Source: Vibrio superstes
Lineage (GTDB): Bacteria; Pseudomonadota; Gammaproteobacteria; Enterobacterales; Vibrionaceae
DNA: 64,000 nucleotides
Assembly: GCF_003569005.1 (NCBI RefSeq)
Contig: NZ_BCUR01000004.1
Coordinates: 956,003-1,020,002, forward strand
Reading direction: 5' to 3'
This document shows positions 14,602 through 31,603 of this stretch, piece after piece. Every line of letters begins with the position of its first letter. The first letter of the stretch is position 1. Below the pieces are notes generated by a model that had not been told where the DNA came from, made no database searches, and saw nothing but the letters and a program-made list of their open reading frames with translations. The position numbers and the translations under genes are program-made.

Positions 14602-14765
14602 AATCTAAAGAAGCCGCTTTTATAGCGGCTTTTTGCTATCTAAAGCATTGAAATAAATCGCTATTTACGCAAAGTAAACCTTTACCTCAAATTATTTTTG
14701 CGAGTCTTCACGCATTTCGGACTGGTACTAAACCTTGGTACTACACTATGCGATATCTTTCTCTC
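14584..14765 (+). repeat. Left copy of 182-bp island-bounding direct repeat
   Basis: Identical, base for base by eye, to 35654-35835. It spans the last 18 bases of ffs, its terminator, about 110 bases of AT-rich sequence and the first six codons of the integrase gene. Normal attachment cores are far shorter, so most of this repeat is probably a duplicated island end, not the crossover core. Confidence 0.95.
14611..14635 (+). terminator. Terminator of ffs
   Basis: Stem AAGCCGCT/AGCGGCTT followed by a T run just after 4.5S RNA. An identical second copy lies in the right repeat near 35680-35705. Confidence 0.9.
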
Positions 14766-16766
14766 AGCTCAAATGGGATCTGGCGTTTTCGATACCAGAT
14801 CCCTGTGCTTGCTCGGCCGTTTTTTGGCTTTCGACGTGAGGTAAAAACGTCCTTAGGTTCGATATCCAAACAGGCGGCTCAAATTAAAGCCTTGCAACTT
14901 GAAGTTGAGATAAAAATAAAGATGAAGACACTGCATACTCATTGTATTACCAGTACTGAACTTACGCTCCAGACTGTGCCAGTTATCATTCACCTGTGTG
15001 CTTTGGATAGTCAAAGGCTAATAGAGAAAGCGTTGGAGCTACTTGAGAACGTTCCCGAGAATCAGGAGAAATTACGCCAGCTGAATCAGGTATTTACGAA
15101 AGAGCGTATACCACCCAATAAGATGTATCTTCTCGACTTGAGCCTCACTCCATCGCTTGCGGTAGTGAATGAGATTTATGCGGGAGGATTAGCTCCCTCA
15201 CAGTTTGTTAAGAACATGATGAAGCAGATCAGCTTTATTGACGGTACATCACCTGCCCCTGAAGCGATGGATCTGCTGATGATGAAGTTCACGAATCTAC
15301 TTGATTTAAGGTTGGATGCACGCCGAGCATTCGAGTCACTGGATTTTCCATTGATAAAGAAGATCCACAATCAGTTAAGTCAGCTCTCTGAAAGTACCCA
15401 ATATCTTGATAATGAGTGTTTTGATCACAGCTACACAGAGCCGATTGATGTAAAGAGTCGACAAGATGAAGCCTCGCAACAATGCCCAACGAGTTCATCA
15501 CAACCGTTCAGCCAACCGCAGACCAGTGCCACCGTTTCTCACTCAAATGCAGAGGCAGATCCTATGCCTGCTCCTTCGTGTCCTCGCCATTGGCATATCC
15601 AAACGGTGCTTGAGGCGCAGAAGAAGGAAAAGGAACAGCTGTTGGTTGTGAATTCGAATAGATCAGAGCTTCCCCCTGAGGGAGATCGTGCACAGCGTCG
15701 ATGTTTGGTGGTGCATGAAGTGCTAGGTACGGATGATGTGCGTAACATTTCGCGAGATCAGGCCATTAGAGCCGCCGCGATCATCACCACTTTGCCTGTT
15801 GACCCACTAAAGACACGTCATAAGGCATTATTTGAGGGGCGTTCGAGAACCGAATGGCCTGAGATTAATGTGAGCCTAGACTCGCCATTACCCACGCTGA
15901 AACAAAAAACGGTCAGCGACTATATCGGCTCGATATCTACGCTTTATGCTTGGGCCTCGAAGCATTATGACAAAAAACACATACAGAATCCTTGGGTAGG
16001 CATCGTTAAGAAGCGTCCTCAAGGGCAAAAGGAAGTGGATGACCGATTACCAATGGACGAGACTGATTTAGCCATGGTCTTTGGCCATCGGGTGTTCTCG
16101 AAGGGGCAACTTGGGGTGAATCCACGTACGAAAACCCCTTGTGCTTATCAATATTGGCTACCACTGCTGAGCTTATATGATATGTTGCGAGGCAACGAGG
16201 GGGCGCAATTATATCGCGATGATATTAAAACCGAGTGCAGCATCCCCTATATTGAGGTGCGCGCGGGTAGGGAGCTTCAGAGTGTCAAGAATCCTCAATC
16301 CATTCGGAAGCTGCCGATACATGCACGATTGATAGAGTTAGGGTTTATCGATTACGTGTCTTTGTTTGAGCCCAATGAACGTATTTTTCCAGAGTTAAGT
16401 TATCACCAGAAAGATAAATACTTTCGAGGTGCCGGTGACTGGTTTTCACGAACGTTCAGTAAAAAATATCAAGAGAGCCCTGAATTAAAGTCATTCTACA
16501 GCTTGCGCCATAATTGCCTTGGTTTCTATAAAGATAACATCGGGATAAATCAACCCCTGATAAAGGCGCTGGCCGGGCATATTAATGCAGACATTACGTT
16601 TGAGCGATATGGAAAAGAAGTCGCGCTGAAAATGTTAAAAGAACAGCTTGATGCGCTGCATTTTCCGTGTGTTCCTGAGCACATTACCCCATTTTTTGAG
16701 GGGAATTACCTGCAATACCACAAAGAGCATCGTGAGAAATATCTCGCCATGCAGTCTAAAAAATAG
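14748..16766 (+). CDS. Large tyrosine recombinase (island integrase)
   Basis: 672-aa site-specific recombinase, long for the family. The N-terminus is of the short beta-sheet type seen in large integrases (MRYLSLSSNGIWRFRYQIP). A Ser/Pro/Gln-rich linker lies near residues 240-285. The C-terminal catalytic domain carries Arg481 (MLRGNEGA), Lys514 (SVKNPQS), Arg587 (SLRHN), His611 (AGHINAD) and the nucleophile Tyr621 (FERYGKE). All catalytic positions are filled, although the usual HxxR motif is SLRH. The gene starts inside the left repeat, 146 bases after ffs. It should catalyse island integration and excision at ffs. Confidence 0.92.
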   Translation: MRYLSLSSNGIWRFRYQIPVLARPFFGFRREVKTSLGSISKQAAQIKALQLEVEIKIKMKTLHTHCITSTELTLQTVPVIIHLCALDSQRLIEKALELLENVPENQEKLRQLNQVFTKERIPPNKMYLLDLSLTPSLAVVNEIYAGGLAPSQFVKNMMKQISFIDGTSPAPEAMDLLMMKFTNLLDLRLDARRAFESLDFPLIKKIHNQLSQLSESTQYLDNECFDHSYTEPIDVKSRQDEASQQCPTSSSQPFSQPQTSATVSHSNAEADPMPAPSCPRHWHIQTVLEAQKKEKEQLLVVNSNRSELPPEGDRAQRRCLVVHEVLGTDDVRNISRDQAIRAAAIITTLPVDPLKTRHKALFEGRSRTEWPEINVSLDSPLPTLKQKTVSDYIGSISTLYAWASKHYDKKHIQNPWVGIVKKRPQGQKEVDDRLPMDETDLAMVFGHRVFSKGQLGVNPRTKTPCAYQYWLPLLSLYDMLRGNEGAQLYRDDIKTECSIPYIEVRAGRELQSVKNPQSIRKLPIHARLIELGFIDYVSLFEPNERIFPELSYHQKDKYFRGAGDWFSRTFSKKYQESPELKSFYSLRHNCLGFYKDNIGINQPLIKALAGHINADITFERYGKEVALKMLKEQLDALHFPCVPEHITPFFEGNYLQYHKEHREKYLAMQSKK

Positions 16767-17598
16767 ATATTGTATTCGAGCTCTTATCAGTTCAGCACCA
16801 TCGCTATATAAATCGCTTATGTCTCAAACGTGCTTAAGGACTCTTCGCTAGCAAGGTTTTGCCCCATTTCGTGCTAGCACCGCTTACCTCTTCTTGGGAT
16901 ATCCGTCCTAATTGGCTAATTTTTCTTTATGTCTGTAATGCAAGGTAATACCCCTTTACTCTTTCTAGAATTTTTTAGGTTTATTAATGTCAATTCATTT
17001 AGGCTTCTTAAATACACAGTTAGATTATCGTGAGAATTAATGGCTGTATACTTAGCGATGTTTTCTTATTGGGCAAATTTCTTAAAGATTTTATTTGAGA
17101 ATCATTGTATTTTGGTACTAACGCTGCTTGATTGTAACTACAGCTAACATCGATAAGAACGTCACTTAGCGAACGTAAACCTAGTCCAGAGACAGTGCTG
17201 CAGTGTGCTTTCTATCTAGTCGCTCTTCAGTTGCTGGGTCGAATCGTATGAAATGTCTTATGAATATTAAAGCTTCCTCAGAATCATAGAGTACTATGAT
17301 CGGATGCTGCGTTAACCCAATCCCTTATTTGAAAGGTATTTCTTCGCTTAATCAAAATAAGAACTTAGTTATTCTATAATTAAAGAGCATTTCTTGTTTT
17401 TGTGACTTAAAGCTCTAAAAACCAGACAGGTTAGTTACTATAGTAAATAGTGTCCTACTGCATGGTCAGCTAAGAAAGTGATAATTAATTACGCAGAATA
17501 ATTTGCCAAAACGGACTAAATGGTTTACGTAATCAGTAGATTCTTCAGCAAGGTTAATGGGGAGAGGCTTATTAGGATGACACACATCGAGGGTGTAA
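16767..17598. other. Long non-coding stretch after the integrase
   Basis: About 830 AT-rich bases without a supported gene. No repeat, tRNA or IS remnant is apparent. A near-palindrome TCATAGAGTACTATGA at about 17287-17302 is the only structure seen. It could hold regulatory DNA for the LysR pair, or the excision-associated sites expected beside an integrase. Confidence 0.5.
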
Positions 17599-17607
17599 TA
17601 TATTAAT

Positions 17608-18534
17608 ATTCATGATTTAGACCTAAATCTATTAAAAGTATTACGAGCGATCGTAGAGACGAAAAGCGCAAGTTCAGCAGCGGTGAGGTTAGGGATTTCT
17701 CAAGCCAGCGTGAGTCGTGGAATAGTGAAGCTCAGAGAGCATTTTGGGCCACAGTTCATTGTTCGACAACATCACGGGTTAGCACCCTCTGAATTAGCGA
17801 TTAAACTAGCTCAAGCTTCTGCAGAAATTCTGTTGCCTATTGAGAAAGTACTGGACGCCTATTTAGACTTTGAACCACAGCAGTACACTGGCAAGATCAC
17901 TATTCTGGTGAATACGTTTTTGCTCGAATTTTTTGGCCCAGAATTGGTGCTTCAATTAAGGCGATCTTTCCCAAACGCGACGTTTAATCTATCTCAATGG
18001 CAAAAAGACTCATTGAACGACGTGCTCAAAGGCAACGTTGATTACGTTATTCAATTGCAATCTTACCAATTCCCACAACAACTGCACTGCCGCGGCTTAG
18101 CTCAGCTAGAGAATGTTCTTATTGCGCGTAAAAACCATCCAGTGCTATCGAAAAGCAGCGATTGGGAGAGCATTCATCACTTGCCCATAGCTCGGTTGTA
18201 TTTGGATGGCATCAATCCTAATAAAGGCATTTTAGAGACTCTCTACGAACAAAGAGGTTACAAGGCGAATTTCTTACTGACTACGCACAGCATTCGTGCG
18301 GCTGTGGCTTTGATAAAAAATAGCGATGCGATTCTATTCTCAAACCGATATGTGTGTGTGAACGATCCGGTACTCTCAGAATATGCGCTTCCACCGACGC
18401 CAGAGACATTCAACCTTTTGGACATCAATGGCTTGTATTTGCAAGACCGACGAGGGAACCCCTTAACTCAGGCCCTTCATCAATCAATACAAACCTTTTT
18501 TGACTCCAACTCTCTCATTAAGGGTAAGCAATGA
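17608..18534 (+). CDS. LysR family regulator, first of a tandem pair, start codon unclear
   Basis: The protein from HDLDLNLLK onward aligns well with the next gene, and a complete helix-turn-helix (SSAAVRLGISQASVSRG) is encoded. There is no ATG, GTG or TTG ahead of it: where the paralogue has its ATG this frame has TAA (17596-17598). The first usable GTG (17683) would delete half of the DNA-binding domain. An ATG at 17577 is out of frame by one base. Either ATT (17608) initiates, or a one-base change has silenced the gene. The C-terminal effector domain is intact (DWESIHHLPIARL; NSDAILFSNRYV). Its stop overlaps the ATG of the next gene by 4 bases. Confidence 0.7.
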   Translation: MHDLDLNLLKVLRAIVETKSASSAAVRLGISQASVSRGIVKLREHFGPQFIVRQHHGLAPSELAIKLAQASAEILLPIEKVLDAYLDFEPQQYTGKITILVNTFLLEFFGPELVLQLRRSFPNATFNLSQWQKDSLNDVLKGNVDYVIQLQSYQFPQQLHCRGLAQLENVLIARKNHPVLSKSSDWESIHHLPIARLYLDGINPNKGILETLYEQRGYKANFLLTTHSIRAAVALIKNSDAILFSNRYVCVNDPVLSEYALPPTPETFNLLDINGLYLQDRRGNPLTQALHQSIQTFFDSNSLIKGKQ

Positions 18535-19448
18535 AAACAAAACTGCACGACCTCGACCTTAACTTACTGAAATATCTGGAAGCTATTGTCCATTCAGGCA
18601 GCACCGCAGCGGCAGCGGAACACTTAGGTGTCTCACAGGCGAGCGTGAGCCGAGGTTTAGCGACACTGAGAGAAACGTTTGGTGATGAGCTTTTTATTAG
18701 AAGAGCTCATGGGGTCGAACCTTCTGATTTGGCGGTTAAACTCGCTGAAGCCAACGCTGAAATGCTTAGGCCATTGAGCCAAATCATTGACTCATACCAA
18801 GACTTCGACCCAAAGATGTTTGAGGGGACAATAAGAATAGCGATCAACATCATCATATTAGAGTTGCATGGGGATGGGCTCTTTAGTCAATTGAGAAACA
18901 CCTTTCCGAAAGCTGATTTTGAATTGATTTACTGGCAAGAAAATTCATTAAGTCAGGTATTAGACGGCAACATTGATTACATCGTTCTTTTTGCCTCTCA
19001 AAACCTCCCACAAAACATCTATCGTCATACTTTAAAGGAAGTCGATCTTTGTCTTGTGGCTAGGAAAGATCATCCGATCCTTAGTTTAAACTCAGATTGG
19101 GAGAATATTCATGACTTGCCGATCGCTAAAATCATTGTTGATGGCGTCAAAACTAAACACTCAAAGATAGAAGAGTATTACGCCTACAAGGGCTATCGAG
19201 CTAGAGTCTCACTATCCACACACAGTGTACGTGTAATCATTAACAAATTAGTGAACTCCGATGCCATTATGTTTGGCAGTCAGTTTGTCAGCACATTAGA
19301 TGAGCAGTTATGCCGTTATAGTTTGCCGCTTTTACCCGAAGGGTTGAGAACAAGTGAAGTGTGTGGTGGGTACTTGCAGTCCAGAAGAGGAGTGCCTTTC
19401 TACTCCGCGTTACAGCAATCTGTTCAACACTATTTCACTAAAATATAG
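18531..19448 (+). CDS. LysR family regulator, second of a tandem pair
   Basis: 305 aa. Winged HTH at residues 8-66 (LDLNLLKYLEAIVHSG; HLGVSQASVSRGLA), then a periplasmic-binding-like effector domain (ARKDHPILSLNSDWENIHDL). The ATGA overlap with the preceding paralogue implies one operon. It is related to that gene and to the regulator at 21300-22235 over the whole length, so the three arose by duplication, either in this island or in an ancestor. Its targets are probably the adjacent outer-membrane and efflux genes (inference). Confidence 0.9.
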   Translation: MKTKLHDLDLNLLKYLEAIVHSGSTAAAAEHLGVSQASVSRGLATLRETFGDELFIRRAHGVEPSDLAVKLAEANAEMLRPLSQIIDSYQDFDPKMFEGTIRIAINIIILELHGDGLFSQLRNTFPKADFELIYWQENSLSQVLDGNIDYIVLFASQNLPQNIYRHTLKEVDLCLVARKDHPILSLNSDWENIHDLPIAKIIVDGVKTKHSKIEEYYAYKGYRARVSLSTHSVRVIINKLVNSDAIMFGSQFVSTLDEQLCRYSLPLLPEGLRTSEVCGGYLQSRRGVPFYSALQQSVQHYFTKI

Positions 19449-19653
19449 AACAGCCAACAATTCAACAGCCTTTTCGGTAGGAAGCACTCCTATTGGCCAA
19501 ATATGAAAATGCCATGCCATCGTTTAGGCGCTGTTTAAGCACGATGGCGACACCTCTTTTCTCATGTCGCTTTAAGCCTAATTAAATGTGTTAGCAGCCT
19601 CTCTATTTTTCAGAGTTATATCACATTGGTCGATGGCCTTTGGTGGCGTGAAA

Positions 19654-20040
19654 CTAGAAATTGCTTTTTAGCAGTGAGCGTGAGTACTTTCTCAATGCAA
19701 CAACGTCAAAAACGGCAGTCATATCGACATGCTTGACCTCTGATTTTATTTGAACATCCTCTAGCCAAAAAACATCAAAGAGGAGGTGAAGGTCATTCGC
19801 CAGCAATTGCGAGATCACTTCCTTTTTATCGATGTACTTTTCGAGCATTTTGGTAATGTCCACCAAGATAACACGATTTTTAACCCTCGCTTTAGTGAGC
19901 TGCTCGATGTGCGATCCAATATTGTTCACTATGATGATTGAACACTGTCCTTCTCCAGTATCGAAAACATCATAGGGTCTGTCGTTCAGATAGATAGTTG
20001 TTTGGTATTGCTCTTCTTTAAGCATCAAATTTAGGGTCAT
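19654..20040 (-). CDS. Unknown small protein
   Basis: 128 aa from the ATG at 20040 (MTLNLMLKEEQYQ); the frame is open for 36 more codons, but that part is hydrophobic and poor in coding character. A beta-strand-rich start (TTIYLNDRPYDVFDTGEG) is followed by a Rossmann-like strand (CSIIIVNNIGSH) and a mixed C-terminal half. It loosely recalls the N-terminal strands of alpha/beta hydrolases without a catalytic site, so it may be a fragment. I do not recognise it. It lies alone on the minus strand between the LysR pair and the DUF2860 gene. Confidence 0.5.
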   Translation of the reverse strand: MTLNLMLKEEQYQTTIYLNDRPYDVFDTGEGQCSIIIVNNIGSHIEQLTKARVKNRVILVDITKMLEKYIDKKEVISQLLANDLHLLFDVFWLEDVQIKSEVKHVDMTAVFDVVALRKYSRSLLKSNF

Positions 20041-20251
20041 TTTAATTTTCCAAATAAGAATAGATAGCGACATATTATATTTAGCAATGGACAGTAAAAA
20101 TGAATAAGAGATATTCATTTTTACCATTGAAGATAAACAAATTTGCATAGCTGTTATTCATTTTAAAAATAAAAATAACACTTAATATAGCGCTCACTAA
20201 ATGGATGTAACGAAGTCAACATAAGGAAAGAAATATTAAGAGAGTTATAAA

Positions 20252-21205
20252 ATGAAAACTAAAAGCATACTATCCGCAGCCATTCTATCTTCATTAGCAG
20301 CAGGCGCTTTCGCCTTCGATTCTTCACGCTTGAGCGGTGAGATCATATTAGCAACAGGTTATGTGTCGACAAACTCAAACCTCAGCACTGAAAGCGATGC
20401 GCAGCTAAACGATAGAACGAGTAAAGGTTCCCATAACGATGACGTTATTGTGATGCCTCTAGGTCACATCTCGTACGAACTGGTTGATAACCATACTCAG
20501 AGGGTTTATATGGGTACTTCTCGTGACGATTTGGCTGTTGGTGACCTCGCTTTTGAGATTGGCTATCAGTTTGATATGCAAAACGGTACTCAGGTAGATA
20601 TTGCTTACCTACCAACCGTTCTATCTGGTGAAGTATGGAAAGACCCATACTTACAAGGCCGTCGAAGCAAAACGGATATTGATGGGCACGCTTATCGATT
20701 GAAGTTGAATAACATTGTAGGCTCTGGCTTCTCTGTTGATATGGCGTACGCAACCCAAGAAATTGATGAAGAGCACATTCAAGAAGCAGAGCTATTGCGT
20801 GACAGCGATATGTACGCGCTAAAAGGTAGCTATTTAGCACACTTTGGACCAAACATGGGACTGAGTACAAGCCTTGGCTATCTAAATAATGACGCAGATG
20901 GTAAAGCAGAGACGTTTGAACAATATGAATTAGAAATGACGTACTTTGTGACTCATGCAACGCACACACTTGCTGTGACGAGCAGCTACGCGTACCGAGA
21001 CTACGATGGCCATAACTCTTTGTATGGTAAAACGCGCTCAGACAACAAATACAAATTGTTTGTCGCTTATGAGTACGCTAACTTTGCTGGTTTAGATAAC
21101 TGGAGCTTAGTGTCGTTTGCGGGTGTGAACTATAACGATTCCAACATCGATTTCTACAAGAATGAAGAGTATCTCGCATCAGTTGGTATGAGCTACAAGT
21201 TCTAA
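20252..21205 (+). CDS. DUF2860 outer-membrane protein
   Basis: 317 aa with a signal peptide ending near AGAFAF, followed by a beta-rich barrel (LSGEIILATGYVSTNSNL; VSFAGVNYNDSN) ending in aromatic KF. Early content and size fit the DUF2860 family found in vibrios. It is flanked on both sides by related LysR regulators (tandem pair upstream, third copy downstream and convergent). This pattern suggests it is their regulated target. The ligand is unknown. A long hairpin terminator follows directly. Confidence 0.82.
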   Translation: MKTKSILSAAILSSLAAGAFAFDSSRLSGEIILATGYVSTNSNLSTESDAQLNDRTSKGSHNDDVIVMPLGHISYELVDNHTQRVYMGTSRDDLAVGDLAFEIGYQFDMQNGTQVDIAYLPTVLSGEVWKDPYLQGRRSKTDIDGHAYRLKLNNIVGSGFSVDMAYATQEIDEEHIQEAELLRDSDMYALKGSYLAHFGPNMGLSTSLGYLNNDADGKAETFEQYELEMTYFVTHATHTLAVTSSYAYRDYDGHNSLYGKTRSDNKYKLFVAYEYANFAGLDNWSLVSFAGVNYNDSNIDFYKNEEYLASVGMSYKF

Positions 21206-21219
21206 GTTTATAAAGAATT

Positions 21220-21281
21220 AAAGCCTCTTATGTATTTCCTTTCCCAACTCCCCTTTTGAGTTAGGAATACAGAGAGGCTTT
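21220..21281. terminator. Long hairpin terminator
   Basis: Outer stem AAAGCCTCT/AGAGGCTTT, then an inner stem pairing GTATTTCCT and AACTC with GAGTTAGGAATAC, closed by a run of T. It serves the convergent DUF2860 and LysR genes. Confidence 0.8.
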
Positions 21282-21299
21282 TTTTGTTTGGATAAACCA

Positions 21300-22235
21300 C
21301 TATTCAATTGTTGGTTGGACAATAGAATTAAAAAAACCTTGCACTGCTTGATGTAAGTGTTGATTAAGTGGATAACCTCGCTTGGACTGCAAATATCCCC
21401 CCGACACACTGATCTCTTTTAGTCGCTCTGGCAACGGAGGCAAGGCATAGCAAGCCAGCTGGTCATCATGGGTCAGCAGGTAGCTGCTGTTAAATGCGAT
21501 GGCATCCGAGTTGATCAGCTTATCCACCAGAATCGGAACACTATGACTGACTAATACGACGTTTGGCTCTGCGCCTTGATCTAGAAACAGCTCATCGTAA
21601 GGGTCGTATCTACCTTTCATCGAGTCCGATACATACTTCACTAACGGGAGGTGTTTAATGGACTCCCAATCTGATGTGTTGCTTAACACAGGGTGATCTT
21701 TCTTGGCGACAAGGTTGATAACGATGTTCGATAGGTGGTGAGTGTAAATATCTTGCGGCAATTGGAACATGGTGTAATGAAGGATGTAGTCGACTTCTCT
21801 GTTTAATGTATCTTGCAAGGAGTTTTGTTGCCAATAAGTAATCTTGAACTTTGTCTTTGGTAATGCTTTTGTCAATGCTTGATAGAGCCCTTTACCAAAT
21901 ATGTCGAGTAAGGTTAATTCACACGCAATCACAATGTTGCCATCATATTCAAGTGGGTCAAAATCTTGATAAGACTCTAATACTTGACTAAAAGGCACCA
22001 ACATATGCTCAGCGGCTTCTGCTAGTTTCTCTGCTAATTCCGAAGGTTCAACCCCGTGTGCTTTGCGGATGAACAATTGATCACCAAACGTTTCTCGGAG
22101 CTTCGCCATTCCACGACTGACACTGGTTTGAGAAATGCCAAGTTTTTCCGCCGTGATCGAGGTGTTTTGAGTCTCTACCACCACCTTTAATAACCTGAGT
22201 AGGTTTAAATCGAGGTTTTCTAGATTCTTATCCAT
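21300..22235 (-). CDS. LysR family regulator, third paralogue
   Basis: 311 aa from MDKNLENLDLNLL; a slightly longer MTSDMDKN start is possible, and the open frame continues upstream without support. HTH: EKLGISQTSVSRGMAKLRE. The effector domain keeps the paralogue signature (AKKDHPVLSNTSDWESIKHL; NSDAIAFNSSYLL). It lies on the opposite strand from the LysR pair, with DUF2860 between them. It is followed at 22480 by the Omp85-like gene on the same strand, which suggests influence over that gene as well (inference). Confidence 0.9.
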   Translation of the reverse strand: MDKNLENLDLNLLRLLKVVVETQNTSITAEKLGISQTSVSRGMAKLRETFGDQLFIRKAHGVEPSELAEKLAEAAEHMLVPFSQVLESYQDFDPLEYDGNIVIACELTLLDIFGKGLYQALTKALPKTKFKITYWQQNSLQDTLNREVDYILHYTMFQLPQDIYTHHLSNIVINLVAKKDHPVLSNTSDWESIKHLPLVKYVSDSMKGRYDPYDELFLDQGAEPNVVLVSHSVPILVDKLINSDAIAFNSSYLLTHDDQLACYALPPLPERLKEISVSGGYLQSKRGYPLNQHLHQAVQGFFNSIVQPTIE

Positions 22236-22479
22236 GTCTGACGTCATCCTCTTTAAAGTCTCATTCTGACTCACAACATAGCATAAATAGGTGAAAAATA
22301 GAGACTTATCCGCTGAGAAAGCGAGCTTAGAGATTGGAAGCAATCACATTGAAGAAGATGGGAGATAAATCATTGAGAAGAGATGGCAGTAGTTACCTAG
22401 ATAACGCTTATCCTTGATAGTCATAGGTATTACTGCTGATACACGAAGAGATGGATTCGATGCATCAGCAATCGCAATG

Positions 22480-23745
22480 TTAGAAGGCTTGGTTAACCGT
22501 GAAGCGAAGGATTGAATCGTCTTGACTGAACGCAAAGTCAGCGCGAGCGACGATGTTCTCTATGAACACCCTTACACCCACACCACTGCTCCATTGCATG
22601 TCTTTGTGTAGCTCGATCATATCGAATTTGTTTTCAACGCTCCCAAGTTCTGCAAACACGGCAAATTGCCACCAAGGAAAATTGTAGTGCCTTAGCAGTG
22701 GCGCTGTGGTTTGCGGTTGCCAGTTCGGAACAAGTCGATATTCCGCGCCATAAAAGAGTGCACTGCGATCATGGAAGTAATTATCGCCATAACCACGCAT
22801 TCGGTCAGGGCCACCCAATGTTGACTGTGCAAACCAATCTGGCTGGGTACTCGCGACACTGTTTTTCCAGGTGGGCATGTCTGATAGATACCCAGTTAAT
22901 GAGAGCGTCTGCTGTTGACTCCATGTGTTGCTACCAAGGTCTAGATATTGTGTATGTTGCGCTTCCCATCGAGTGTAGCTAGCTCTCGTTGAGTTACCCC
23001 AGTCACGGATAATGCTGGCGTAACTATGGGAGCCATTGCTTGCCGAAGGCGCGTAATTTCTTGTGTCACGGTCTAGCTTCATGCTCATGCCATACGTTAC
23101 ACCTTCCACATTCTCAACGTCAGGAGAGATAAAATCTCGACTTCGGTAAAAGGGCTCTATTTCGAAGACTGTCCGTATGGGGTTGGCAGAGTAGGTTGTT
23201 AATGAATTATGCGTGGTCGGATAGCTCGTTTTAACCTTGTCCTGAGAAAGGAGATACCGAAAGGTCATGAGCACATCTCTTTGAAGGTGGGACGCATTAC
23301 TTGAGGCGTTACTCTCTCGATCACCAATAAAAAAATCGGTGTCGGTAAACTCAGCCTGAAGTGCAGATATATCAAGGGTCCAGCGATCGGACAATCCATA
23401 GTTGAAATAACCTAGGTAGCTAAGATAGCTGTCATTGACTGAATAGGCGCCAAAGGCTACGGCTTGGGCTTGACGCTGTCCAACGCCTGTTTTCGAAATC
23501 AGTGAGCCTGCGAGTAAACCGGTACTTTCCATCGCCCCTACAATAGGGATGATGACCGTATCTTTCGTCGATTGGGAGGTTTCAATTGGGTAAACTTCAA
23601 GATCGCCTTCGTCAGCACGTAGTTCAAACCCAGCCACGAAAAGAACGGAAAAGCCAACAGATAGAGCGGAGCTCTTAACCTGGCTAAGCTTGGCTTTCCT
23701 TAGCGAAACTCTATTTGTATTGTGTTTGTGTGCACCAAAATTCAT
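22480..23745 (-). CDS. Omp85-superfamily outer-membrane barrel without POTRA domains
   Basis: 421 aa. A long N-terminal hydrophobic signal region (residues 22-43) precedes a barrel of D15/BamA type. The C-terminal part has the family's loop-6 motif in GGPDRMRGYGDNYF (RGY), strand motifs ALFYGAEYRL and SSGVGVRVFIENIVARADFA, and terminal Phe (RFTVNQAF). There is no room for POTRA domains: barrel-like sequence begins by residue 70. It lies 264 bases downstream of a patatin lipoprotein gene on the same strand. In type Vd secretion a patatin domain and such a barrel form one protein, so this may be a split version. A stand-alone barrel unrelated to secretion is the alternative. Confidence 0.75.
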   Translation of the reverse strand: MNFGAHKHNTNRVSLRKAKLSQVKSSALSVGFSVLFVAGFELRADEGDLEVYPIETSQSTKDTVIIPIVGAMESTGLLAGSLISKTGVGQRQAQAVAFGAYSVNDSYLSYLGYFNYGLSDRWTLDISALQAEFTDTDFFIGDRESNASSNASHLQRDVLMTFRYLLSQDKVKTSYPTTHNSLTTYSANPIRTVFEIEPFYRSRDFISPDVENVEGVTYGMSMKLDRDTRNYAPSASNGSHSYASIIRDWGNSTRASYTRWEAQHTQYLDLGSNTWSQQQTLSLTGYLSDMPTWKNSVASTQPDWFAQSTLGGPDRMRGYGDNYFHDRSALFYGAEYRLVPNWQPQTTAPLLRHYNFPWWQFAVFAELGSVENKFDMIELHKDMQWSSGVGVRVFIENIVARADFAFSQDDSILRFTVNQAF

Positions 23746-24009
23746 TGTCGTTTACTCAAGTTTGCTTGCTAAACCGCGAATGTGGCGATCATTTAAAACA
23801 TTAATGATTTTAAGGTTTACGGCGGTTTTAACTATGAATTAGAGATATCCAAATATGAGCATTCGGCGACAATTTGGTGTTTGGATTGGCAGTAGGAAAT
23901 GACCGCTGAACATGGGTTTGTGTTCAGCGGTACTGATGGGTTTGTTTTAAGTTGAGATAGCTCTCGCGGGTGTTTTTAAAGGTGTGATCTTATCTGGGAT
24001 TGCTGGCCT

Positions 24010-25359
24010 TTATTCGCTGTCTATAGTGAGCAAGCATGTCTGTATTTGCTTGCTCAATCCGCTGTCAAGTTGCTCCCAGTCAAAATCACGAATACTAGTC
24101 GCACCATTTCTCATTTGATGTGCCGCGCCTTCTTCGTGGATCTGAGCGTAATTGGGAAGGTCGCTATTCCAGTGGCTTTGATTTAAACCTAGAGCGTAAC
24201 CGTAACAATAGAGATTTTGCATGTAGATCTTATCAAAAGGCGCGTCTTCAGGTGCGTCGGGTAGACGGTCGGGTATGTATGAGTAGTTAAACGATGATTC
24301 CGTTAACTGACTTTGTTGGTAAACTTGAGCAATGCTGTTTCGGCCTTGGAATTTGATCATCGTGGATATTGAACGGCTGACAATATCTGTGATTGAGAGT
24401 GCCGTGGGGTGCCAACTGGCTCCAATTCGAGCGTTGCTGATCAACCAAACATAGCTCTCTTTCCCACGTTGAACATCAAGGCCTCGCTGTTTAAGATTAA
24501 GCTTTTCCACTTCGGCTACCGCTTCAATATCCAGATCTTCAGGGATAAAGAAGACTTGTGCGATCACCCCACCATCCACGTGCATTTCATCATAGAGAAC
24601 ACCGTCGACATTAACTGGAATTAATACGGGCTCAAATATGCCAGGAATCGAAGCGGACGCTAAAATAACACTCTCAAATAAGGCTTCTGCTTCAGGACTG
24701 TCGTGCATCGCAATCGCCCCCATGTTCCAAATCACGGGGCGTTGCTCGTCAAGATTGGTGGTTTGAACGAGGAAACTTCGGCCTCTTAAATACTGCTTTT
24801 TCACCTCATTGAGTAATTCCCTGTCGATTTCCTCTCTCACACGCGTCTCAAATGCTGCAGTATCAAGCAGCGATGAGCTAGAAAATAGCTGCCAAATGTA
24901 GCGAGTTTGATAGAGGTCTTGGTCAGACAGCTGGGTATAGAAACTCTTTAGTTTGTCATCGTATTCTTCGCCAAGAAAGGCGTACAAGCCAATGATTGCT
25001 CCTGTGCTGATCCCCGTGACTAGGCGGTATTCAGGACGTTCACCGCTTTGTGTTAATCCATTCAGTAAGCCCGCACCATAGGCCCCATTTGCACCACCAC
25101 CAGAGATAGTTAGGTGATGTTGCGGCTTGGGTTGCCCATCTTCGTCAATGATCAAAGAAATATCCAAACTGTCTTTGCGCTGTGTTTCACTCTCAATCAA
25201 CTGTTCGACGGATAGAGGAACGTCTCCCCAAACCCTTATTGTGGGGTCACTGAACAGTGAATTAACGGACATTGGGTTCGCTGGGGCAGCTACACGGTTT
25301 ACTCCACTACTGCACGCAACAAGGAGTAGGGACAGACAAACAACACTGAAAATTTTCAT
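24010..25359 (-). CDS. Patatin-like phospholipase lipoprotein
   Basis: 449 aa. Lipobox LLVAC gives lipid-modified Cys16, with Ser next, so outer-membrane sorting is expected. The patatin fold carries the oxyanion loop GGGANGAYGAG (88-97 region), the nucleophile elbow GISTG (Ser118), the ASASIPGIFEP block, and the catalytic Asp in VDGG (Asp262). All catalytic elements are present. The start ATG at 25359 is chosen; a TTG three codons earlier is less likely. The gene has no neighbour between it and the Omp85-like barrel. Phospholipid or lipid-ester hydrolysis at the envelope is the expected activity. Confidence 0.87.
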   Translation of the reverse strand: MKIFSVVCLSLLLVACSSGVNRVAAPANPMSVNSLFSDPTIRVWGDVPLSVEQLIESETQRKDSLDISLIIDEDGQPKPQHHLTISGGGANGAYGAGLLNGLTQSGERPEYRLVTGISTGAIIGLYAFLGEEYDDKLKSFYTQLSDQDLYQTRYIWQLFSSSSLLDTAAFETRVREEIDRELLNEVKKQYLRGRSFLVQTTNLDEQRPVIWNMGAIAMHDSPEAEALFESVILASASIPGIFEPVLIPVNVDGVLYDEMHVDGGVIAQVFFIPEDLDIEAVAEVEKLNLKQRGLDVQRGKESYVWLISNARIGASWHPTALSITDIVSRSISTMIKFQGRNSIAQVYQQSQLTESSFNYSYIPDRLPDAPEDAPFDKIYMQNLYCYGYALGLNQSHWNSDLPNYAQIHEEGAAHQMRNGATSIRDFDWEQLDSGLSKQIQTCLLTIDSE

Positions 25360-25547: not shown

Positions 25548-25578
25548 AATAAAGCCCAATAAGATCTTGGGCTTTATT
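25548..25578 (-). terminator. Terminator of the island RND operon
   Basis: 12-bp stem AATAAAGCCCAA/TTGGGCTTTATT with a 7-base loop, just after the RND stop on the minus strand. It separates the RND operon from the patatin gene. Confidence 0.85.
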
Positions 25579-30403: not shown

Positions 30404-31603
30404 ATGCAAGTTTTAGAAATAGATGGTTTTATCTCATTTACGTTGGCAATCGTGCTGTTATTTATCGGTAAGTTTGCAACAATGCGATATCAATTATTAC
30501 AGAAATACAGTATTCCGGAGCCTGTGATCGGTGGTTTTTTATGTGCTATCGTGGTGGCGGCGGTGTATTGGTTATTCGATCTGACCATTGAGTTCGATTT
30601 GGCCATTAGGGACACATTGCTGCTGTACTTCTTTGCGGGAATCGGCCTCAGTGCCAATCTGAAAACCTTGGTGTCTGGAGGAAAGCCGCTATTGATTCTG
30701 ACGTTCCTTGCGATTGTCTACATAGTGCTTCAAAACATTATTGGCGTGAGTGTGGCTTCGCTGCTTGGGTTAGAGCCAATCTTAGGTCTGATGGCGGGAT
30801 CGATCTCTTTGATTGGTGGCGTGGGCACGACAATGGCTTGGTCTCCAATCTATGCGGATATGGGCATTGAAAGCGCGGCAGAAGTTGGGTTAGCGGCAAA
30901 TACGCTCGGTTTAATATCAGCCTGTTTGGTTGGTGGCCCAATTGCAAAATACTTAATCACCAAACACAAACTCACCCCAAACCCAGACCACAATCTGGAT
31001 ATTGGTGTGTGTCACAATGAAACCACAAAACTGGATCACTTTGGCTATCTTTACGCTTGGTTAATGCTCAACCTGAGCCTGATTTTTGGTTACTTCCTCA
31101 ATATTGGATTTGAACATATTGGCTTACAACTGCCTATGTTTGTCGCATGTTTGGTTGGGGGCATCATTCTAGGCAATGGCAAGTCGATGTTGCTGAAAAA
31201 GAAGAAGAGTAACAATGCGCACCTTGGGCAAGCGCTTATCTCTGACATCTGTCTGGGTATGTTCTTAACCATGGCGTTAATGGGGCTTCAGCTGTGGCAA
31301 CTGCAGAGTACTATTCTGTTCTTAACCATTGTTATGTTTTTCCAAATTGTTCTGTCGATTGTGTTCACCATCTGGGTTGTCTTTCGCTTCATGGGCAAAG
31401 ATTACGAGGCCGCGGTTATTGGTTCCGGCTTTGGTGGTATTACCTTGGGTTCAACCGCAACAGCGATTGTGAATATGACAGCGGTGAGTCAGCGATATGG
31501 CGCAGCTCATAAGGCGTTCATTATTGTCCCGTTGGTGTGTGGATTCTTCATCGATATTGCCAATGCCTTGATCATCAACTCTTTTATCACCTTTAGTTTT
31601 TAG
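30404..31603 (+). CDS. gltS: Sodium/glutamate symporter (GltS family)
   Basis: 399-aa Na+/glutamate importer of the GltS family, with about ten membrane spans in two inverted repeats. Diagnostic features are the N-terminal YSIPEPVIGGF, the re-entrant loop SLIGGVGTTMAW and the second-repeat counterpart GFGGITLGSTATAI. The length equals E. coli GltS (401 aa). It is monocistronic, divergent from the efflux operon. Two GltS-type transporters in one genome are common in vibrios, so this may be an accessory copy and not the housekeeping one. Confidence 0.9.
   Translation: MQVLEIDGFISFTLAIVLLFIGKFATMRYQLLQKYSIPEPVIGGFLCAIVVAAVYWLFDLTIEFDLAIRDTLLLYFFAGIGLSANLKTLVSGGKPLLILTFLAIVYIVLQNIIGVSVASLLGLEPILGLMAGSISLIGGVGTTMAWSPIYADMGIESAAEVGLAANTLGLISACLVGGPIAKYLITKHKLTPNPDHNLDIGVCHNETTKLDHFGYLYAWLMLNLSLIFGYFLNIGFEHIGLQLPMFVACLVGGIILGNGKSMLLKKKKSNNAHLGQALISDICLGMFLTMALMGLQLWQLQSTILFLTIVMFFQIVLSIVFTIWVVFRFMGKDYEAAVIGSGFGGITLGSTATAIVNMTAVSQRYGAAHKAFIIVPLVCGFFIDIANALIINSFITFSF

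What the first reader, a model, noticed from the sequence alone, without database searches (positions are those of the whole stretch)
22480..25359. Split type-Vd-like pair: patatin lipoprotein plus POTRA-less Omp85 barrel
Patatin with complete catalytic residues is encoded next to an Omp85-type barrel with the RGY loop motif and no visible POTRA domain. In known type Vd autotransporters (PlpD, FplA) the two are one polypeptide with a POTRA between. Here the patatin is a lipoprotein with its own export signal, and the genes are separate. This may be a two-component surface lipase, or a lipid-processing pair at the outer membrane.
Basis: partly seen in the sequence, partly recalled or inferred. 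Interest (0 to 1): 0.72.

Follow-up and report, generated by a model that had tools for sequence, protein, structure and literature searches.

The report
Lipid-cutting lipoprotein beside POTRA-less Omp85 barrel
Two neighbouring genes of a Vibrio-type bacterium encode a lipid-cutting lipoprotein and an outer-membrane barrel of the Omp85 family without its usual periplasmic arms; this exact pair was found in no other genome searched, but related lipase and barrel genes go together in part of the genus, which hints at an outer-membrane lipid machinery.

Summary
24010-25359 (-) encodes a patatin (PF01734) with a lipobox and intact catalytic Ser/Asp; 22480-23745 (-) a 16-stranded Omp85 barrel with an RGY loop and no POTRA (AlphaFold2; nearest BamA, Z 23.8). 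Gap 264 bp.

The exact pair is not conserved: in the best 80 of 178 named relatives of the barrel, alr lies directly upstream in 80 and a patatin nowhere within 6 kb; of 102 fetched patatin loci of the family none has this barrel type.

The kind of pairing recurs. A paralogous patatin lipoprotein (about 30% identical) has another POTRA-less Omp85 within 2.5 kb downstream in 36 of 47 loci. All 24 of 99 genus genomes with that patatin also have that Omp85 type and a third protein (FPIW); at a laxer limit 17 further genomes have the Omp85 without the patatin. Carboxylesterase and phospholipase-D-type lipoproteins often sit nearby.

'Split type Vd surface lipase' is a poor model: PlpD's patatin domain is now reported to be periplasmic. 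I favour an outer-membrane lipid-processing partnership; incidental adjacency is nearly as likely.

The parts
24010..25359 (-). Patatin-family lipoprotein, 449 aa (ATG 25359; stop included)
   Evidence: PF01734 E 9.7e-25; invariant catalytic residues and C16
25312..25359 (-). Lipoprotein signal peptide with lipobox LVAC, Cys16, Ser at +2
   Evidence: sequence; C16 invariant in 17 rows
25006..25008 (-). Catalytic Ser118 codon (GISTG)
   Evidence: sequence; invariant
24574..24576 (-). Catalytic Asp262 codon (HVDGG)
   Evidence: sequence; invariant
23902..23931 (-). 11-bp perfect hairpin in the gap between patatin and barrel, no U-tract
   Evidence: RNA fold
22480..23745 (-). POTRA-less Omp85 barrel, 421 aa, 16 strands
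   Evidence: NF047779; AF2 model; BamA Z 23.8
22789..22797 (-). RGY motif of loop 6 (R317-Y319)
   Evidence: sequence; R317 invariant in 47 rows
21300..22235 (-). LysR-type regulator downstream on the same strand (ATG form; one search lists a TTG form from 22343); 54% identical to a LysR near an FPIW-Omp85-DUF4056 cluster of another genome. Membership in the unit is not shown.
   Evidence: L268
25605..28664 (-). RND efflux permease upstream; relatives (68-83%, in one genome broken into pieces) stand with gltS near the patatin in five other genomes. Membership in the unit is not shown.
25548..25578 (-). Terminator-like hairpin with T-rich tail between the RND gene and the patatin
30404..31603 (+). 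gltS (sodium/glutamate symporter type, name recalled), a recurrent neighbour of this patatin family

Best explanation
The patatin is an outer-membrane lipoprotein that hydrolyses phospholipids or other acyl lipids. The barrel is a POTRA-less ('noNterm') Omp85 in the outer membrane. They most likely act as separate polypeptides in one outer-membrane lipid-handling step, working like PlpD (patatin held at the inner face of the outer membrane beside an Omp85 barrel), with the lipid anchor taking the place of the covalent link and POTRA. The window pair would be a lineage-specific variant of a partnership that recurs in the genus with other paralogues (FPIW protein + patatin lipoprotein + POTRA-less Omp85, often with carboxylesterase and PLD-type lipoproteins). 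Shown: domains, predicted fold, lipobox, adjacency, linkage and co-occurrence of the paralogous set. Inferred: enzymatic activity, physical partnership, periplasmic side, and that the window pair does what the paralogous set does.
For: Patatin with intact dyad and lipobox. Omp85 fold without POTRA. The paralogous L263-type patatin has a POTRA-less Omp85 within 2.5 kb on the same strand in 36 of 47 loci. Presence in 99 genus genomes: this patatin in 24, this Omp85 in 26 (my limit 550 bits), long FPIW in 27, all three in 24, also where unlinked, as in the window's own genome (patatin C1:1428730, Omp85 C1:587241). Lipolytic context: carboxylesterase near the long FPIW in 19 of 29 fetched loci, PLD-type in 16 of 29; an alpha/beta-hydrolase lipoprotein next to other short Omp85 genes (L261; L320). 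A LysR 54% identical to the one behind the window barrel stands near an FPIW-Omp85-DUF4056 cluster. PlpD's patatin domain is reported periplasmic (PMC11116518).
Against: The window pair itself was found in no other genome searched. Its barrel groups with the alr-linked subfamily (84/66, long branch 1.6 with a long-branch warning), in whose best 80 named loci alr lies directly upstream every time and no patatin within 6 kb. The window genome's own alr-pgi locus has no barrel, so the window barrel may be the moved copy still doing that job. The other patatin loci show no Omp85 in the fetched flanks (0 of 45 'other', 0 of 11 'mid', flanks mostly about 6 kb), nor do 17 class genomes outside the family apart from one weak fragment. 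The Omp85 count depends on the limit: at E <= 1e-50, 41 of 99 genomes match, 17 of them without the patatin; the window genome's own member scores 558 bits, little above the limit. 10 of the 47 L263-type loci show no Omp85 in the fetched flanks. With 8 short Omp85-type genes and 9 patatins in this genome, some adjacency is expected by chance in about 3% of such genomes (9 x 2 x 8 / 4200, gene number assumed). The gap is 264 bp with a strong hairpin.
Confidence: 0.43

Rival explanations
1. Incidental adjacency: an alr-type POTRA-less Omp85 was moved next to an unrelated patatin lipoprotein; the barrel keeps its ancestral, unknown function and the patatin works with its RND/gltS neighbourhood.
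For: alr directly upstream of the barrel on the same strand (gap -37 to +89 bp) in 80 of 80 named loci, patatin in 0 of 80; the window genome's alr-pgi locus lacks the barrel; RND (68-83%), gltS and FPIW stand beside the patatin in L079-L082 and L132; same-strand RND within 4 kb in 10 of 45 and gltS within 2.5 kb in 7 of 45 'other' patatin loci; chance estimate about 3% per genome; an integrase-like gene 6 kb away.
Against: Patatin lipoprotein plus POTRA-less Omp85 recurs with other paralogues; same strand, no gene between; LysR of the same subfamily near this and another Omp85 cluster.
Confidence: 0.4
2. The barrel translocates or flips the patatin lipoprotein to the cell surface (two-component surface lipase, in the manner of two-partner secretion or Slam).
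For: Some Omp85 proteins translocate polypeptides (recalled); surface lipoprotein lipid enzymes exist (VolA: passages of PMC5500766; ClsO: passages of PMC12846801); an Omp85 protein without POTRA lies in a proposed export cluster for lipoproteins or another non-polar ligand in Borrelia (passages of PMC13078400).
Against: No POTRA to receive a substrate; PlpD's patatin domain is reported periplasmic (PMC11116518); [quoted passage not shown] coli (PMC5500766), so such an enzyme need not have a dedicated partner; no data on surface exposure here.
Confidence: 0.15

Closest known systems
PlpD / PL-Omp85 (type Vd, Pseudomonas aeruginosa)
   Same: Patatin enzyme together with a 16-stranded Omp85 barrel at the outer membrane
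   Different: Two genes instead of one chain; no POTRA; patatin is lipid-anchored; its family is only remotely similar to PlpD's patatin (PDB 5fqu, E 0.007)
'noNterm' Omp85 subfamily (Heinz and Lithgow 2014, PMC4104836, passages)
   Same: Omp85 barrel without N-terminal extension; only a possible role in membrane protein biogenesis is suggested there
   Different: Here beside a patatin lipoprotein; membership in their sequence cluster was not tested
alr-linked POTRA-less Omp85 of Vibrionaceae and Shewanella
   Same: Nearest relatives of the window barrel, 29-35% identical
   Different: Directly behind alr in 80 of 80 loci; no patatin within 6 kb
ClsO, surface cardiolipin synthase lipoprotein (PMC12846801, passages) and VolA, surface lysophospholipase lipoprotein (passages of PMC5500766)
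   Same: Lipid-modifying enzymes that are outer-membrane lipoproteins; PLD-type lipoproteins occur in the paralogous cluster
   Different: Different enzyme families; no Omp85 partner named in the passages seen
Borrelia BBJ25 (PMC13078400, passages)
   Same: Omp85-type barrel without POTRA in a gene cluster tied to non-polar ligands
   Different: Cluster of ABC transporter, LolA-like and TPR proteins; no patatin mentioned in the passages seen

Membership tests
Patatin-like phospholipase (PF01734) | Profile match above the gathering score, GxSxG nucleophile, DGG aspartate, oxyanion glycines | tested here: met
   88.3 bits vs 27.7; conserved residues
Patatin-like phospholipase (PF01734) | Lipid acyl hydrolase activity | not testable with these tools
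   no assay
Omp85 superfamily | 16-stranded BamA-like barrel with loop-6 RGY | tested here: met
   R317 invariant in 47 rows. Sequence profile match is below the NCBIfam cut-off and absent in Pfam
noNterm Omp85 | No POTRA or other N-terminal extension | tested here: met
   first strand at residue 63; residues 1-62 signal-like helix and low-confidence coil
Type Vd / PL-Omp85 | Patatin, POTRA and barrel in one polypeptide | tested here: not met
   two ORFs 264 bp apart
Type Vd / PL-Omp85 | POTRA domain | tested here: not met
Type Vd / PL-Omp85 | Homodimer with contact between patatin lid and barrel | not testable with these tools
   no complex prediction available
FPIW-patatin-Omp85 set of the genus (defined here) | Belongs to the L263-type patatin and Omp85 subfamilies | tested here: not met
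   window patatin 212 bits against 547-680 for the set; window barrel groups with the alr type
Slam-type lipoprotein exporter | Slam barrel and periplasmic domain | not tested
   no dedicated search; Pfam and NCBIfam report no such match for the barrel

The most novel reading that the evidence does not exclude
Vibrio-type genomes carry modular outer-membrane lipid-processing systems in which a POTRA-less Omp85 barrel, a second outer-membrane protein (FPIW) and exchangeable lipolytic lipoproteins (patatin, alpha/beta-hydrolase, carboxylesterase, PLD-type) work together, a 'split PlpD' architecture; the window pair is a second, independently formed member of this kind, in which a lipid-anchored patatin replaces the fused patatin-POTRA unit.
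Probability: 0.3. Interest if true: 0.75.

Novelty: new variant of a known kind. Interest (0 to 1): 0.5.

Why it matters
For Omp85 proteins without POTRA the passages I read offer only a guess at function. If they act with lipolytic lipoproteins, as the gene profile in part of this genus suggests, the Omp85 scaffold would have a use besides protein insertion and translocation: handling membrane lipids. The PlpD revision opened that question, and these systems offer genetically separate parts on which to test it.

Tried and rejected
The first neighbour screen, by BLAST with three barrel queries, found no Omp85 in 55 patatin loci (56 fetched); the profile screen showed that it had missed one (L247), and the zero was withdrawn. 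A scan of named genomes with the barrel alone found no relative; the alignment query found 178, of which the best 80 were kept. PDB sequence searches: A3 gave two matches of no meaning (best E 0.041); A6 and A4 none up to E 1. FPIW has only sub-threshold matches to OMP_b-brl, so calling it an outer-membrane barrel is a guess. Literature: only listings were seen, in part: 25 of 189; 20 of 20; 15 of 61; 12 of 87; 12 of 79; 8 of 636; 5 of 5; none of the listed titles describes a patatin lipoprotein with a POTRA-less Omp85, which is no proof of absence. Five papers were opened for passages only. Outside the family, 18 of 369 class genomes match the L263-type patatin profile, one being the window's own; in the 19 regions around the 19 other matches no Omp85 lies beside the patatin except one weak fragment (31 bits, L366); PLD-like genes lie near it in L358 and L362; in L363 and L370 the script found no patatin ORF. 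Co-occurrence was not corrected for kinship; the Fisher values overstate it. No genome tree was made. The second structure job and the remaining fold searches were not used; no complex prediction is offered.

Full report
What is there. The patatin gene (24010-25359, -) and the barrel gene (22480-23745, -) are both real. The patatin matches PF01734; its catalytic residues and Cys16 are conserved in a 17-row alignment. The barrel has no Pfam match and a sub-cut-off NCBIfam match to Omp85_fam, E 3.3e-14. A model from 47 rows has 16 strands (residues 63-419), RGY between strands 11 and 12, and nothing that could be a POTRA. SAM50, TamA and BamA are the nearest solved structures. The RND gene upstream ends before a terminator-like hairpin (25578-25548). 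The patatin-barrel gap is 264 bp and holds an 11-bp hairpin without a U-tract, so co-transcription is possible but not indicated.

The exact pair is not conserved. In 329 genomes of the family, relatives of the patatin (E <= 1e-40) occur in 72 and of the barrel (E <= 1e-20) in 193. I fetched 102 of the 103 other patatin rows plus one: 102 loci, 103 patatin ORFs of at least 250 aa. None carries a barrel of the window's type (flanks mostly about 6 kb, a few cut by contig ends). From the barrel side, alignment A1 found 178 relatives in named genomes, of which the best 80 were kept, from Vibrio, Photobacterium, Aliivibrio, Enterovibrio and Shewanella. alr lies directly upstream on the same strand, gap -37 to +89 bp, in 80 of 80; pgi is in the fetched stretch in 62, yjbQ in 51, a patatin in 0. 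The window's genome has dnaB-alr-pgi with no barrel between. The tree puts the window barrel beside the alr type with weak support (84/66) and a long branch, with a warning about long branches. A moved and diverged alr-type barrel is the natural reading (inference).

What the patatin usually stands beside. Its nearest relatives (58-62%, L078, L128-L131) have no Omp85, RND or FPIW in the fetched flanks. In five genomes (49-52%; L079-L082, L132) the order is RND (68-83% to the window's; broken into pieces in L082) - a small gene - gltS - FPIW - patatin. Of 45 'other' loci, 10 have DUF2955 directly upstream with an EmrA-like gene before it, 10 an RND permease on the same strand within 4 kb, 7 gltS within 2.5 kb. 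FPIW is my label: the short type (about 277-325 aa) has the motif FPIW or LPIW near its mature N-terminus and a weak match to OMP_b-brl; longer types (about 480-600 aa) are related by BLAST (24-29% over about 290 residues).

A paralogous pair recurs. The L263-type patatin lipoprotein (about 30% identical to the window's) has a POTRA-less Omp85 downstream on the same strand within 2.5 kb in 36 of 47 loci, and in 37 of 47 anywhere in the fetched flanks; two loci have under 2.5 kb on one side, and in G025 the Omp85 lies just outside the stretch fetched. Four such barrels tested match Omp85 in Pfam; three of the four are below E 1e-8 in NCBIfam, the fourth 0.0005. In 99 genus genomes this patatin (540 bits or more) is in 24, this Omp85 (550 bits or more, plus G059 in two pieces) in 26, the long FPIW in 27; all three in 24; FPIW+Omp85 without patatin in 2 (one of them 65% complete), FPIW alone in 1, none in 72. 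The Omp85 number depends on the limit: scores fall from 558 (the window's own genome) to 505 with no wide gap, and at E <= 1e-50 41 genomes match, including all 24. Kinship was not corrected for. Members co-occur even where unlinked, as in the window's own genome. Around the long FPIW a carboxylesterase lipoprotein lies within 4.5 kb in 19 of 29 fetched loci and a PLD-type lipoprotein in 16 of 29, in varying order; these loci were fetched for patatin or FPIW and some share a genome. A shorter FPIW type sits with a POTRA-less Omp85 and DUF4056 (L077, L259, L260, L268, L270), in L261 with an alpha/beta-hydrolase lipoprotein between; L262 has FPIW and DUF4056 without an Omp85. One short Omp85 gene of the window's own genome is followed by an alpha/beta-hydrolase lipoprotein (L320). 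Outside the family the pairing was not seen in 19 regions, apart from one weak fragment.

Mechanism. A recurrent link between lipolytic lipoproteins and POTRA-less Omp85 barrels fits a role in outer-membrane lipids better than protein secretion. The PlpD study reports that its patatin domain stays in the periplasm, that PlpD is a homodimer, and that a segment of the patatin domain swaps with the neighbouring barrel (PMC11116518, abstract and passages). A lipid-anchored patatin beside a bare Omp85 barrel could do the same job as separate chains. For the window pair this is inference. Adjacency alone carries little weight: the genome has 8 short Omp85-type genes (POTRA-less by length, modelled only for the window's) and 9 patatins, which gives about 3% chance adjacency per genome under an assumed 4200 genes.

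Verdict. The description is confirmed. The name 'split type Vd' is not: two defining features (one chain, POTRA) are absent and the pair is not conserved.

Noticed in passing
L247, L263-L267, L275, L278, L302, L306, L309 (unnamed genus genomes): FPIW protein, L263-type patatin lipoprotein and POTRA-less Omp85 within one stretch, with carboxylesterase and/or PLD-type lipoproteins nearby in permuted orders.
   Followed up: partly
L077:5071-8371; L259, L260, L268, L270: FPIW - POTRA-less Omp85 - DUF4056 triplets; in L261 an alpha/beta-hydrolase lipoprotein lies between Omp85 and DUF4056.
   Followed up: partly
L086, L087, L088, L145, L146, L232, L233, L235-L237: Patatin lipoprotein overlaps or directly follows a DUF2955-type gene and an EmrA-like adaptor gene: a possible efflux-linked lipase.
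   Followed up: no
L269:2741-7203: FPIW gene behind a START-domain gene and an HpnN-like MMPL transporter gene, suggesting lipid transport.
   Followed up: no
window 14748-22343: Integrase-like gene (phrog_1, E 1.8e-10), then three LysR paralogues (43-50% identical to one another) and a DUF2860 gene in a stretch of lower G+C (0.38-0.44 from 17000 to 21999).
   Followed up: partly
L264:7874-9099: The L263-type Omp85 gene is in two separate ORFs in this genome, while FPIW and patatin ORFs are whole.
   Followed up: no
L366:3331-4002: Weak Omp85-like fragment (31 bits) near a patatin lipoprotein in a genome outside the family.
   Followed up: no
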